Source of the DNA: Lepraria neglecta | Taxonomy: Eukaryota > Ascomycota > Lecanoromycetes > Lecanorales > Stereocaulaceae | Length of the DNA: 64,000 nt | NCBI GenBank assembly: GCA_033220425.1 | Contig: CM065650.1 | Location: 3,596,001-3,660,000, forward strand | Reading direction: 5' to 3' | Shown here: piece by piece, positions 31,359 through 36,966 of the stretch | How the letters are laid out: each line of letters opens with the position of its first letter | Numbering within the stretch: the first letter of the stretch is position 1 | Program-made: the position numbers and the translations under genes | Notes under the pieces: model-generated | Database searches by the model: none | What the model was told of the DNA's origin: nothing | What the model saw: only the letters and a program-made list of their open reading frames with translations

Positions 31359-32900
31359 TCATGCTCGCCGATGAGGAAGCGTGCTATCGACAGAGTCCTT
31401 CTTTCCATGCCCATTCTCGAGCCTCTTCCCTGTCCCTGCTAGGTGTTGCATACCGAGGCCTTCGCGTTCTCCTGCAACATTTGCACCGTTTGCTTGTTCA
31501 ACCTTAGGCTCACCAACATGTTCAATGGCCCCTCCTCCCTCGTTCTCATCAAACGCTTCAGCTTTCCAATCCAGCCTCGGTTCCCTAAGGTCCTCCAAGC
31601 ACCTCACAACCTTCACCTCCGCCGCCTTCGTCTTCCGCAACCATATCCTCTTCTCGCTATCCTTCTCCTTCTCCATGACCCCCAACGGCCCAGCCATACC
31701 CTCCAGCTCCTTATCCCTCGCCTCTTTCGTCTTCGATAAGACAGTATGCATACTCCCCAACACCTTCTCTGCAGCCTTCGCTAGCGGCAAATCCTCCGCT
31801 TCAACATCATCAGGCGAGACCCAGGATTTGGTGTTGTTGAGGTCGGCATGAGTGACGGCCTCGCGCAGACGGACGACGGTCAGGGCAGCGAACATGTCCC
31901 CTGTGCCGCTGAAGAAGCAATCGATGGCTGGGACGTCGATCTTGAAGATACGTGGAGAGGAGTCGGAGCGGGCAGTAGAGCCGATGATGGACATGGTGGA
32001 GGGTTTATCGGGGAGGTTGATGGAGGTCACGATGATGTGGGGGGTGCGGTGGGTTTTGTGGAGCTTGGTTATTGCTTCTTTGAGGCTTGAGAGGGAGGTG
32101 ATTTTGATTTCGGAGAGTATTCTGAAAGTCTTAGCTTAGGGGGCTGATCAAGTGGTCGGTGGAAGAAGAGCTTACTCGGCCTCGAACTGGTTTGGCAGGA
32201 TCAGGTCCGCGTCCCGCAGCAAATTTCTGTATACAGGTACTACGTCCTCGCTAATATAGAGTTTGCCTTGGTCGCCCATGACTGGATCGAGGACTGTTGA
32301 TCTTCAGCTGTTGTCTTTGTTTGCTTGTTCGAGGACCATTGACTTACTCCAGAAGAACGAGCCTGCCTTCATCGAGCCCTTTAATTTGAGATCCCTAGCA
32401 ATGGAGCCAACAGCGTCCACGGTTTCAGCGCTGGGCGCATAGCCTGTGAGCAGGACATCGAAGTCCGTCAGGTAGCTTTGCTTTAGTCCAGTGTAGAGAT
32501 CTTTTATTTCTTCTGCTGAGGCCTTCGTGCCCTTCCATTGTTTGTATCCGGTATGATTGCCTACCTTAGTATCAGCAGGTACTATATCTCCATGGTCTGA
32601 GCAAGAAGGACCGGAGAATGTATACTGTATTGCACGGTGTTGAGAGCAGCAACGTCGCAGCCCAGTGTCTGCATGACAAGCGCAGCCATAGTATTTCCAA
32701 CATATCTGCGGTCCGTTAGGACTACATTTGGTGGCCATAAATTGGGATGTTCCTGCATAATGCCCGTAAGACTCACCCATAGACGACCTTGAAGTGACGC
32801 GTTAGCCATAAGCACCACCGGCATGATAGGGCAGTGGCGTCCCTACATGACTGGCTATGGCCAACACACGCGTTTCTGGCACCACAGGATCTGAAGACAT
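31359..32900 (-). CDS. BUD16: Pyridoxal kinase (Bud16 family)
   Basis: There are six exons: 32847-32900, 32777-32787 (an 11-nt micro-exon), 32626-32705, 32348-32560, 32176-32293 and 31359-32121 (1239 nt, 412 aa). The micro-exon supplies VVYG and restores ASHVVYGYVGNTMA, the conserved pyridoxal-kinase start. Later joins restore [26 protein letters not shown] and [16 protein letters not shown]. The catalytic ribokinase-fold motif is [12 protein letters not shown]. The enzyme phosphorylates pyridoxal, pyridoxine or pyridoxamine in the PLP salvage pathway. A C-terminal charged extension past the kinase core (about 100 residues) is disordered. Confidence 0.95.
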
Positions 32901-33374
32901 AGTTAGAGGTATTAGCTGTCAATCATGAGAAGAGTGAAGGTTGAAGATTAGGTCACGAGAGTCAAGTGAGATAATTTTGACCGCTTATCTTATCGCAGTC
33001 CGAAGTCGCGCTAAGGGAAATCTGCCTTGGACGCCTTGAAAACCAAATGCCGACAAGATGTGATGCTGCATTGCTGCAGGTATGATAGCAAGTCATGAAA
33101 TTAAGTGGCTGGTTCGCTATAAGCACTTTTTGTTGCAGAAATGGAGACCTTTGGTAGCTTCATGGAGGCACACTGAAAATTTTGCAAGCATCTTTCCTAT
33201 GTGTATGGTATTGGATCATGGTATTATGACCGTTTGTGCATAAAGACAATCTTTGCAAGCTTCGAATTGATAAAGCAGCTATCTATCCTGGCCACAGCTC
33301 ATCATCATCGTACAGGCCCACTGACGCAATGCTCGGGTGACGCAATTTTGGTTGTCCGCTTCTATACCTAGCCG
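32901..33374. other. Gene-free spacer
   Basis: This holds the promoter of the pyridoxal kinase gene and the 3' flank of PCNA, both on the minus strand. Nothing else was recognised. Confidence 0.5.
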
Positions 33375-34367
33375 TTACTCCTCATCGCCGATCTAGCAAA
33401 GGTGTCAGCAAGTGATCAAGGAGCAGTGTAGGTGATACAATTTACCTTTGGTGCCAGGTAGAATCTCAAGAAGCTGTTTGACGCTAGAGTGTATTCGACC
33501 AGCAACGGTACCTCGTTCGACAGGCACAACTTTACAGTGTTGGAAAGGCCACTGGCTTTGCAGAAGTTGACGAGGTATTTCAGGGAGAATGTCAGAGCGA
33601 CGGGCTCTGATAATGCGATGTCGACGTTCAGCTCTGGCTTGTCGACGTTCTGGTGGCTTCGAAGGGTGACTGCTCCGTTGCCAATATCACCTGAACAGGA
33701 GAACTTGACACCGTCCTTTGTAGCTTCAATAGCAACTGGATAGTAGATCAGCACAAATGCAAGGAATTTCATAGACAAGCTCTCATACCTGACTCTGACA
33801 ATGCCATCAAGTCCCTACAGATCCTCTGAAACTCCGCCGACGGCATAGTAATAGTAGCCGCATACTCCGTCTCTGGAATGCCCAAATGCTCCTGGTCAAT
33901 ATCCATAAGCTTGATATCATATTCGCTAATACGATCGCTCTCGCTGCTCTCAAACACCAAGTTGACGACATCTGGTGCGTCTTCCGCCTTCAATGTCAGG
34001 ATATCCTCATTCTGTGCACAGCGTAGGACTTTCATGAGCGAGGTGAGGTTGATGCCGAGGGCGATGTTGCGGTCACAGCGGAAAGGGGAGAAGGATTCGG
34101 CTTTGAGCATCATGGAGACGAGGGCGACGTGGGAATTGTCCATGGCTTGGAGAGCGACGCCGGAGTCATTGCAGTCGAAGTTGCAGTCTTGGACTAGGTC
34201 TTTGATGGCATCGACGACCTAGAGGGATGTTTGAGTATGGTTTTCGTGTAAATTGGGCACATGTAGTGTACCTTCTTAAGCAGGTTGGCCTGCTCTAGTC
34301 GTGCCTCAAGCACTGGGGGCGTTGATCAGCATTCATCTATTACACGAGTGCGGGGAGGGCACATACT
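33375..34367 (-). CDS. POL30: Proliferating cell nuclear antigen (PCNA), sliding clamp
   Basis: Coding exons are a single base at 34367, then 34272-34312, 33789-34218, 33446-33735 and 33375-33392 (780 nt, 259 aa, the standard length). The first intron (34313-34366) splits the start codon: the A is in exon 1 and TG begins exon 2. The joined start is [20 protein letters not shown]. Family landmarks are [39 protein letters not shown] and the C-terminal RFYLAPKIGDEE. The last 18-nt exon supplies IGDEE. PCNA tethers polymerases delta and epsilon and recruits PIP-box proteins at replication forks. Confidence 0.98.
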
Positions 34368-34898
34368 CTTGAGTTAAAGCTGGATGTTTCTCAGTAGGAT
34401 CGCACTCCGTGAGTAACAATTGTGCAATTACAGTGTGGAATGTATTTCTTGCAATGAAGGGCGTCACTCGGTCAAGAAGAAGGCTCTTGTTTGACTGAAG
34501 GAAAGCCGTTGAAAAAGTCGTGATGTTTGTGAGCTTGGCGCGTACTTTAGTTTCGCGACGCCAAAAACGCGCTACTAAAGTGGTTTGGCCAAGCCCTAAC
34601 AAACTTGCCCTGCGAGCCTTGTGCCTATGCAGAAGAGCCTGATCGATTCAAACAGTATTTCCACTGCTTCAACGATCCGGTTGGGAAGCATAGTTTATTA
34701 AAGAGTCTAAGTAAACCATATGATTTCATTCCTATGATACATGTATCTAACGCGCCTTTTATGTATTCGGGGTATCAATCGCCCAAACTACGCTCCTGTA
34801 AATGCAGTCATGAATTGTGAACCCGTGAGATACCCATTATGAGCAAAGCAAAAAGCCATCATCATGTCACCAGAAGCAATTCGAGCGTCAAAATTTCG
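34368..34898. other. PCNA 5' UTR and promoter region; vezatin-like gene 3' flank
   Basis: No gene is present. It includes the CGCG cluster listed separately and the PCNA first-exon leader. Confidence 0.55.
34538..34572 (-). promoter_or_regulatory. Cluster of MCB/E2F-like CGCG elements upstream of PCNA
   Basis: Within 35 bp lie GCGCGT (34538-34543, the reverse complement of ACGCGC), TTCGCGACG (34552-34560) and ACGCGC (34567-34572). On the PCNA strand this reads as GCGCGT, then GTCGCGAAA, then ACGCGC. These are one base from the exact MCB or resemble SCB (CGCGAAA). They lie about 170-205 nt upstream of the split start codon. Confidence 0.5.
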
Positions 34899-36966
34899 TT
34901 ACATGGTAGTAATTCGTCCAGTCGTCCGTCCCCTGGGTCGTAGCTTAATCACGGTCTCCAACTCCTTGAGCATGTGCGTGTTGGCATTCGCTTTCTCCTT
35001 CACAATTGCCTGTCTCATTCGATCTTCCTTCATCTTAGCAATTCTCTCCTCTCTTGTGAGCGTGCTCCGCTGCCGTGGTAGCGCAACCGCTTCGAAGATC
35101 TCTTCGCCTGAGCTGCTCGTTGTGGTACCGGATCGTGATCGAGGAGGTTTCGGAATTCCATTGAGGGCTTGCAAAGCGTCCTGTGGACTGCCCCCTCCAA
35201 CGGCAGTGGTGCCACTCAATGTGGGAGAAGCCGGTAGCGCATTGCTCGGGGACGACAAAGACCGCATGTGGTCCCTTTTATCAAGGTTCATTGCTAGAGC
35301 CGCTCTGCCCTCCTCCCATTCCTGAATCAGTCCTCTCAAATCAGCGCCTATCGAGTCGTATTGGGCTAATAGATTCGTGCCAGATTCCGTAACTTCGTCG
35401 GATTGGCCCAACGCCTTGTCAGACTCTTCCCGGAGCAAGCGCATCTTTGCTTGAAGCCCCCGGATACCCTGGGACAAATTCCCGACCTGTCGCATCTGGC
35501 TTCGTACGCGCTCCCTACTAGGCGTCAGAGGCATCTTCTGGGAAAGTGGTGTTTTGAATTCTATCCAGTCCTTTGTTAGCCCTCGGAGATGGGGAGAGCA
35601 ATGCTAGACCTCACCTTCTTCATCCCCCAACACTTTATCGATATTGAAGACCATCTTTGAGGTCAAGGAAGAGACGCGATTCATTGTCTCAGTAGCAACT
35701 GACCACCTCTGGGAGTCCGACTTGCTCCCGTCCGCGTCCAAAGCCAGTAACGTGCAGAGAAAGAGCTTCCGAATAAGGTGTAGCTTCTGCAGGCCAACCT
35801 TGAGATCTTGAAGCGTATCGGCATCTTCGATATCAGAAGTATTGACGTTTGCAACCAGCTCTGCATCCTCCATGTCGGTCAAGCTAATCTCGTAGATATC
35901 GTAGTACTTTTCCAGATCTAAATTAATGGCTAATGGTTTCAAGTCTTCATAAGCCTCATAGTATGGTGAGAACATGGAAATCAAAGCCCTTTGGATAGTG
36001 CGGCGTAATCGTGAGCATCGCTTGATCTGATACGTCTCTTCAAGCCTGGTGATTGGAGGGAGCGGGTTGCTTCTAGACGAGATATCAGCATTCTGTCTAC
36101 GTTAGAGGATGTCACATACGTACATGTTATAGCCTCGAGAGACAAGCTCTACTTCCTGTATGAGAGTAATACCGGCAGAAGCCGCGGCATCGAAGTCTCG
36201 AGCGCTTGCCGTTAGGGACGAAGCGCTTTCAACAGCTCGAACACGGAGGTAGTGCAGCCAATGTCGTCGAAAGTAGTAGTAGAGTATTATGGTTAAGACA
36301 GAACATAACGATACAAAGACGACTTTGTGTGGTGTGCTATACCTTGCAATGCCTCGACTATGAAACCAACGTATTGACCAAGCAAGAGCGAAGGCCGTCA
36401 CACCAGTTAACGCAAGCCCTTCCCAGCTGGGTACGAAACTTTGGTCTTTATCCCATTGTGATGAGCCATCTCCAGCTGGTGGTGGAAAGCTCTGGCGTTT
36501 GTACGTTTTTGAGTTCGAATGTTCGTTCAGCAGCTGAGATGCAACTATGGTGTACCGAAACTGTTCGAGGAAATGTGCATTCTTAGTCCAACCAAGTCGA
36601 GTATGAAGAGCGCTCTGCAAACAGGATGTACATTAGCACATAATTGACATGAGAGCGAATGTACAGTCCTACCGAGCAGGTATGGTGTATGCGGGCCACG
36701 GCGCCCTTTAAAGGTGGATTCTCCAGGTTGAGGAGACGTGGTGGCTTTTTGCGAGAGCTTCTGTATTGCGAGGACAGGCCTCGAGGCGCATATGAGGTGG
36801 TCTGAGGTGAGGGAGGGTTGGCGGTAGTCTTTGTTGAAGCCCATTCATCGCCGGCTTCGCCTTGTCCTGTTTTTAGGTCAGCACCCATGAAGAGTAGGCA
36901 ACAACAGCTTTACTTACCTTCGAGATATTGCGCAACCGGGCTATCTTCGAAGACGACAGATTCCAT
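34899..36966 (-). CDS. Vezatin family (myosin-binding, Inp2-like) membrane protein
   Basis: Exons are 36918-36966, 36673-36866, 36124-36614, 35615-36072 and 34899-35560 (1854 nt, 617 aa). After a disordered N-terminus comes TRLGWTKNAHFLEQFRYTIV, then two hydrophobic segments at about residues 146-164 and 178-196, so it is probably a double-pass membrane protein. The join GYNISNPLPPITRLEE and the segment RRTIQRALISMFSPYYEAYE resemble the vezatin / myosin-binding domain. Relatives include yeast Inp2, the peroxisomal receptor for myosin V. Helical and coiled-coil regions follow (GNLSQGIRGLQAKMRLLREE), then a basic C-terminus. A peroxisome-inheritance role is inference from the family. Confidence 0.85.

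What the first reader, a model, noticed from the sequence alone, without database searches (positions are those of the whole stretch)
34312..34367. PCNA start codon is split by an intron, and the unspliced RNA carries a different ATG
The only placement that gives the conserved PCNA start puts the A of ATG at 34367 and TG at 34311-34312, across intron 34313-34366 (donor GTATGT, acceptor CCCAG). If that intron is retained, no PCNA ATG exists. The first ATG is then the one inside the donor (34362-34364), which opens a 12-codon frame ending at 34326. Splicing therefore acts as an on/off switch for PCNA translation. Regulation by this switch is inference; the split itself follows from frame and family.
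Basis: partly seen in the sequence, partly recalled or inferred. Interest (0 to 1): 0.7.

Follow-up and report, generated by a model that had tools for sequence, protein, structure and literature searches.

The report
Ordinary intron splits PCNA start codon
In this mould the DNA-clamp gene PCNA has a normal small intron that happens to fall inside its start codon, so splicing is needed to assemble the start; this is real but uncommon rather than new, and nothing here shows that the fungus uses it as a switch.

Summary
The window lies in a 42-Mb assembly, a filamentous ascomycete by my reading. PCNA (minus strand) is rebuilt from five exons as a 259-aa protein that matches the NCBIfam PCNA model over 1-259 of 259. 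The A of its ATG is 34367 and the TG is 34312-34311, separated by a 54-nt GTATGT...CCCAG intron. This is the only A|GTRNGT donor within 400 nt upstream of that acceptor. If the intron is retained, the next ATG after 34691 is the one in the donor (34364-34362). It opens a 12-codon frame ending in TGA at 34328-34326.

The "switch" is not supported. The splice signals look good and the RNA folds no better than shuffles. Retaining intron 2 or 3 also destroys PCNA, and 5 of 18 sampled donors in this genome are GTATG, so an ATG in a donor is common. Start-codon introns recur here: of 40 legible genes, one (proteasome beta4) is split AT|G and two have an intron just after ATG. A start-codon intron in microsporidian rpL19 is already in print. 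Conservation in other fungi and RNA could not be tested. A new member of a known kind; low interest.

The parts
34367..34367 (-). Last base of exon 1: the A of the PCNA start codon
   Evidence: only A|GTRNGT upstream
34313..34366 (-). Intron 1, 54 nt, GTATGT...GCTGATC...CCCAG, phase 1 of codon 1
34326..34364 (-). 12-codon frame plus TGA opened by the ATG inside the donor if intron 1 is retained; in the PCNA frame
34272..34312 (-). PCNA exon 2, begins TG of the start codon
34219..34271 (-). Intron 2, 53 nt, GTACAC...CTAG
33789..34218 (-). PCNA exon 3
33736..33788 (-). Intron 3, 53 nt, GTATGA...CCAG (this donor also holds an ATG)
33446..33735 (-). PCNA exon 4
33393..33445 (-). Intron 4, 53 nt, GTAAAT...CTAG
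33375..33392 (-). PCNA exon 5 with stop codon
34368..34898 (-). Intergenic leader and promoter region; ACGCG motifs at 34543 (gene strand), 34567 and 34750 (other strand)

Best explanation
An ordinary short fungal spliceosomal intron sits, by historical accident, in phase 1 of codon 1 of the single PCNA gene. It is most likely spliced constitutively, which joins A and TG into the start codon in a fair context (A at -3). Unspliced RNA would start at the donor ATG, stop after 12 codons, make no PCNA and probably be removed by nonsense-mediated decay. Shown: gene model, split, reading of retained RNA, one PCNA gene found, another split start in the same genome. Inferred: that splicing is constitutive, where transcription starts, and decay of unspliced RNA.
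For: Gene model and family match from residue 1. Only consensus donor upstream. Intron 1 resembles introns 2-4 in length and signals. Same genome: proteasome beta4 split AT|G, alpha7 and beta3 ATG|intron, 37 genes with an intact ATG, 40 legible of 60 first pieces; beta4 aligns from residue 1 with yeast beta4. Donors holding ATG are common, 5 of 18. Fold like shuffles, z 0.01; no Rfam match. In print: start codon interrupted by an intron in microsporidian rpL19 (PMC2685015, passages); introns disrupting the start codon 'relatively rare' (PMC1626468, passages).
Against: No RNA data, so constitutive splicing is not shown. Start-splitting introns are uncommon (1 of 40 in the sample, PCNA not counted), so selection for keeping it cannot be excluded. 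No relatives were reachable to ask whether it is recent or conserved. [quoted passage not shown]
Confidence: 0.87

Rival explanations
1. Regulated switch: retention of intron 1 is controlled (cell cycle, stress), so that PCNA translation is gated by splicing and the donor ATG acts as decoy.
For: Retained RNA has no AUG for full-length PCNA and opens a 12-codon frame instead. Start-splitting introns are uncommon, 1 of 40 in the sample.
Against: Consensus donor and GCTGAT motif, no unusual fold, retention of introns 2 and 3 would be as destructive, ATG-bearing donors are common, and the promoter region has a modest excess of ACGCG motifs that would fit ordinary transcriptional cell-cycle control (motif meaning recalled).
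Confidence: 0.05
2. The gene model is wrong at the 5' end: another first exon or start site gives a different N-terminus joined to 34312.
For: Transcription start is unknown, and 12 other A|GT or A|GC sites lie within 400 nt upstream; several ATGs lie further upstream.
Against: None of the other 12 fits GTRNGT, the chosen one gives the length of the other introns, and the family starts at exactly this Met.
Confidence: 0.05
3. Unspliced RNA still makes some PCNA from a non-AUG codon: after the TGA the frame is open through ACG CCC CCA GTG CTT, which would add three residues before Leu2 if ACG starts, or replace Met1 by initiation at GTG.
For: The frame from the TGA at 34326 into PCNA is open.
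Against: Scanning ribosomes meet the donor ATG with A at -3 first; neither codon has a purine at -3 (sequence: T before ACG, C before GTG).
Confidence: 0.03

Closest known systems
Start-codon intron of microsporidian rpL19 (PMC2685015, passages read)
   Same: A short spliceosomal intron interrupts the start codon of a conserved housekeeping gene
   Different: Ribosomal protein gene in an intron-poor microsporidian; here PCNA in a four-intron gene of a filamentous ascomycete
Proteasome beta4 gene of this same genome (L085, AT|G)
   Same: Start codon split by a 50-nt GT-AG intron; residue 1 agrees with yeast beta4
   Different: Phase 2 (AT|G) instead of phase 1 (A|TG); its unspliced RNA keeps an ATG at the same place, read in another frame
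Phase-0 start-codon introns of Nielsen and Wernersson 2006 (PMC1626468, passages read); here proteasome alpha7 and beta3
   Same: Intron at the very start of the coding sequence, over-represented in conserved proteins
   Different: Those lie after the ATG and leave it intact; introns disrupting the start codon are described there as relatively rare
Neurospora frq, splicing-controlled start codon (recalled, no paper read)
   Same: Splicing decides whether a given start codon is present
   Different: frq splicing is recalled as temperature regulated with two isoforms; no regulation is shown for PCNA here

Membership tests
PCNA (eukaryotic sliding clamp) | Both PCNA domains and a full-length equivalog match | tested here: met
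   PF00705 at 1-124, PF02747 at 127-254; TIGR00590 1-259/259, 391.2 bits, cut-off 99.1
PCNA (eukaryotic sliding clamp) | Homotrimeric ring and binding of PIP-box partners | not testable with these tools
   No assay; pocket residues not examined
Start-codon-splitting spliceosomal intron | GT-AG intron inside codon 1 with fungal splice signals | tested here: met
Start-codon-splitting spliceosomal intron | Protein start confirmed by family at that Met | tested here: met
Start-codon-splitting spliceosomal intron | Spliced junction seen in RNA | not testable with these tools
   No RNA reads available
Regulated intron-retention switch | Condition-dependent retention of this intron | not testable with these tools
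   No RNA reads available
Regulated intron-retention switch | Sequence hint such as weak splice signals or a structured intron (a soft criterion, judged by eye and by one fold) | tested here: not met
   GTATGT donor, GCTGAT motif, CAG acceptor; fold z 0.01
Regulated intron-retention switch | Conservation of the junction in related species | tested here: inconclusive
   No relatives found in the two collections scanned, which are bacterial/archaeal and viral

The most novel reading that the evidence does not exclude
Splicing of the start-codon intron is coupled to the cell cycle or to DNA damage in this fungal lineage, so that PCNA RNA is kept untranslatable and is released by splicing, with the donor ATG as a decoy.
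Probability: 0.04. Interest if true: 0.6.

Novelty: new member of a known kind. Interest (0 to 1): 0.17.

Why it matters
It is a clean example of why automatic gene calls can lose the true N-terminus of a conserved gene: no uninterrupted frame shows the PCNA start, and exon 1 contributes one coding base. One further split start and two introns right after ATG in a sample of 40 genes suggest that start-codon introns deserve a systematic count in filamentous fungi. If the retained form were regulated, PCNA would give a simple handle on splicing-gated replication, but that is unproven.

Tried and rejected
Relatives: the PCNA exon 3 peptide gave no confirmed hit in genome contigs (34 pattern matches, 0 confirmed) or viral contigs (6 matches, 0 confirmed), so the junction could not be aligned across species. 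The window's genome has no relatives held (note). Metagenome scans are capped at 0 and were not tried.

Special RNA element: a fold of 34480-34302 and Rfam over 33300-34900 gave nothing. Other first exons were listed and rejected for lack of consensus. Frames 35603-34899 and 32801-32304 had no Pfam match at 0.001.

Literature: ten searches for split or interrupted start codons, start-codon introns, fungal PCNA introns and retention. Several listings were capped (20 of 217, 25 of 310, 30 of 49). In the rows listed I saw no paper on a PCNA start-codon intron; many subscription papers are not in the library. Read by passages only: PMC2664464 (irrelevant), PMC1626468, PMC2685015, PMC10522483 (irrelevant), PMC8942408, PMC7049704.

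Base-rate sample: 60 first pieces from Ras, ubiquitin-conjugating and proteasome matches were looked at; 20 could not be read to a start and were dropped (L007, L011, L013, L014, L016, L021, L023, L024, L029, L030, L040, L042, L044, L046, L048, L054, L055, L056, L058, L063). Of the 37 scored as intact ATG, 36 were found by script; L004 failed there because its exon 1 is shorter than the typed peptide, and was read. Many N-termini were judged from recalled family N-termini, and some genes (L012, L017, L028) have more than one candidate ATG, so single entries may be wrong. Donor sample: 26 junctions listed, 1 skipped, 2 gave nothing, 5 scored under 2 and were dropped, 18 kept; the score gives one point for G at +5, which favours GTATG slightly. 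The ubiquitin-family search gave no loci and is not in the sample.

Full report
What is there. The window is G000:C5:3596001-3660000 of a 42.0-Mb, 11-contig assembly. By its short GT-AG introns and its PCNA sequence I take it to be a filamentous ascomycete (inference). On the minus strand the PCNA coding sequence runs from 34367 to 33375. Rebuilding it gives exons 34367, 34312-34272, 34218-33789, 33735-33446 and 33392-33375, introns of 54, 53, 53 and 53 nt, and a 259-aa protein. The protein matches the NCBIfam PCNA equivalog model over 1-259 of 259, both Pfam PCNA domains and solved PCNAs. The genome searches found one PCNA gene.

The split start. Exon 2 begins TG CTT GAG. The bases before it are CCCAG, so the A must come from an upstream exon. 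Among 13 A|GT or A|GC sites within 400 nt upstream, only 34367|34366 fits GTRNGT, and it gives an intron of almost the same length as the others. The full pattern (A|GTRNGT donor, 45-80 nt, CTRAY motif) precedes 2 of 196 YAG|TG sites in the window; by its sequence the PCNA site is one of the two.

Unspliced RNA. If intron 1 stays, the first ATG downstream of 34691 is the one in the donor (34364-34362), with A at -3. It opens a 12-codon frame that ends at TGA 34328-34326, in the same frame as PCNA. No in-frame ATG then occurs before Met40 of PCNA. Such RNA cannot give full-length PCNA from an AUG. [quoted passage not shown] that this would hold here is inference. A rival route, initiation at the in-frame ACG or GTG just upstream of Leu2, is open in frame but has poor context.

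Is it a switch? Only in the trivial sense. Retention of intron 2 gives 39 aa and of intron 3 gives 163 aa, so those introns are equally essential; retention of intron 4 changes only the tail (263 aa). The donor ATG follows from the GTATG donor type, present in 5 of 18 sampled junctions of this genome and in PCNA intron 3. Splice signals look good, and the RNA folds no better than shuffles (z 0.01). Upstream lie three ACGCG motifs in 531 nt (window mean 0.57; 4.3% of 635 overlapping tiles have as many), a modest hint of ordinary cell-cycle transcription control (motif meaning recalled).

How unusual is it? From Ras-family, ubiquitin-conjugating and proteasome matches in the same genome I looked at 60 first pieces and could read the start of 40. 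In 37 the ATG is intact and not abutted by an intron. In two (proteasome alpha7 in L084, beta3 in L070) an intron follows the ATG directly. In one (proteasome beta4, L085) a 50-nt intron splits AT|G; the spliced product aligns residue 1 to residue 1 of yeast beta4. So PCNA is not alone. In print, Nielsen and Wernersson describe introns right after the start codon as over-abundant and those disrupting it as relatively rare (PMC1626468, passages), and a figure legend of the Nosema ceranae genome paper says that the rpL19 start codon is interrupted by an intron (PMC2685015, passages).

What could not be done. No fungal relatives were reachable (the collections are bacterial/archaeal and viral), and there are no RNA reads in the tools, so conservation, transcription start and splicing efficiency are untested.

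Verdict. A true, neat, ordinary oddity: a known kind of intron position in a gene for which I found no earlier report in the rows listed by ten literature searches. The regulatory reading has no support beyond possibility.

Noticed in passing
L085 (G000:C5, start about 1893423-1893371, minus strand): Proteasome beta4 start codon is split AT|G by a 50-nt intron (GTGGGT...AATAG); product starts MEVLLGFTGKD.
   Followed up: yes
L068 (G000:C6:20601-21050); condensation-domain matches at C6:17855-19096 and C6:37546-42149: A second proteasome beta6-like gene, 107 of 149 aligned residues identical to the copy at C7:643012-643476, lies about 20 kb from a contig end beside nonribosomal-peptide-synthetase condensation domains and a frame that reads by eye like an FSH1-type hydrolase (not searched). 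It resembles a self-resistance proteasome gene in a proteasome-inhibitor cluster (inpE of the Aspergillus nidulans fellutamide cluster; recalled). The cluster was not mapped.
   Followed up: partly
L084 (G000:C7, near 643897) and L070 (G000:C7, near 917835): Proteasome alpha7 and beta3 genes have 49-nt introns directly after the ATG.
   Followed up: yes
L046 (G000:C3:905849-906232): A second Ubc4-like gene with a TAA in the matched stretch and no ATG legible at the expected start; perhaps a decayed or divergent copy.
   Followed up: no
window 32304-32922, minus strand: The next tandem gene, starting near 32900, reads by eye like a pyridoxal kinase; its 165-aa frame had no Pfam match at 0.001.
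   Followed up: no
window 34368-34898: Three ACGCG motifs upstream of PCNA, a modest excess over the window mean of 0.57 per 531 nt; candidate MBF-type cell-cycle boxes (recalled).
   Followed up: partly
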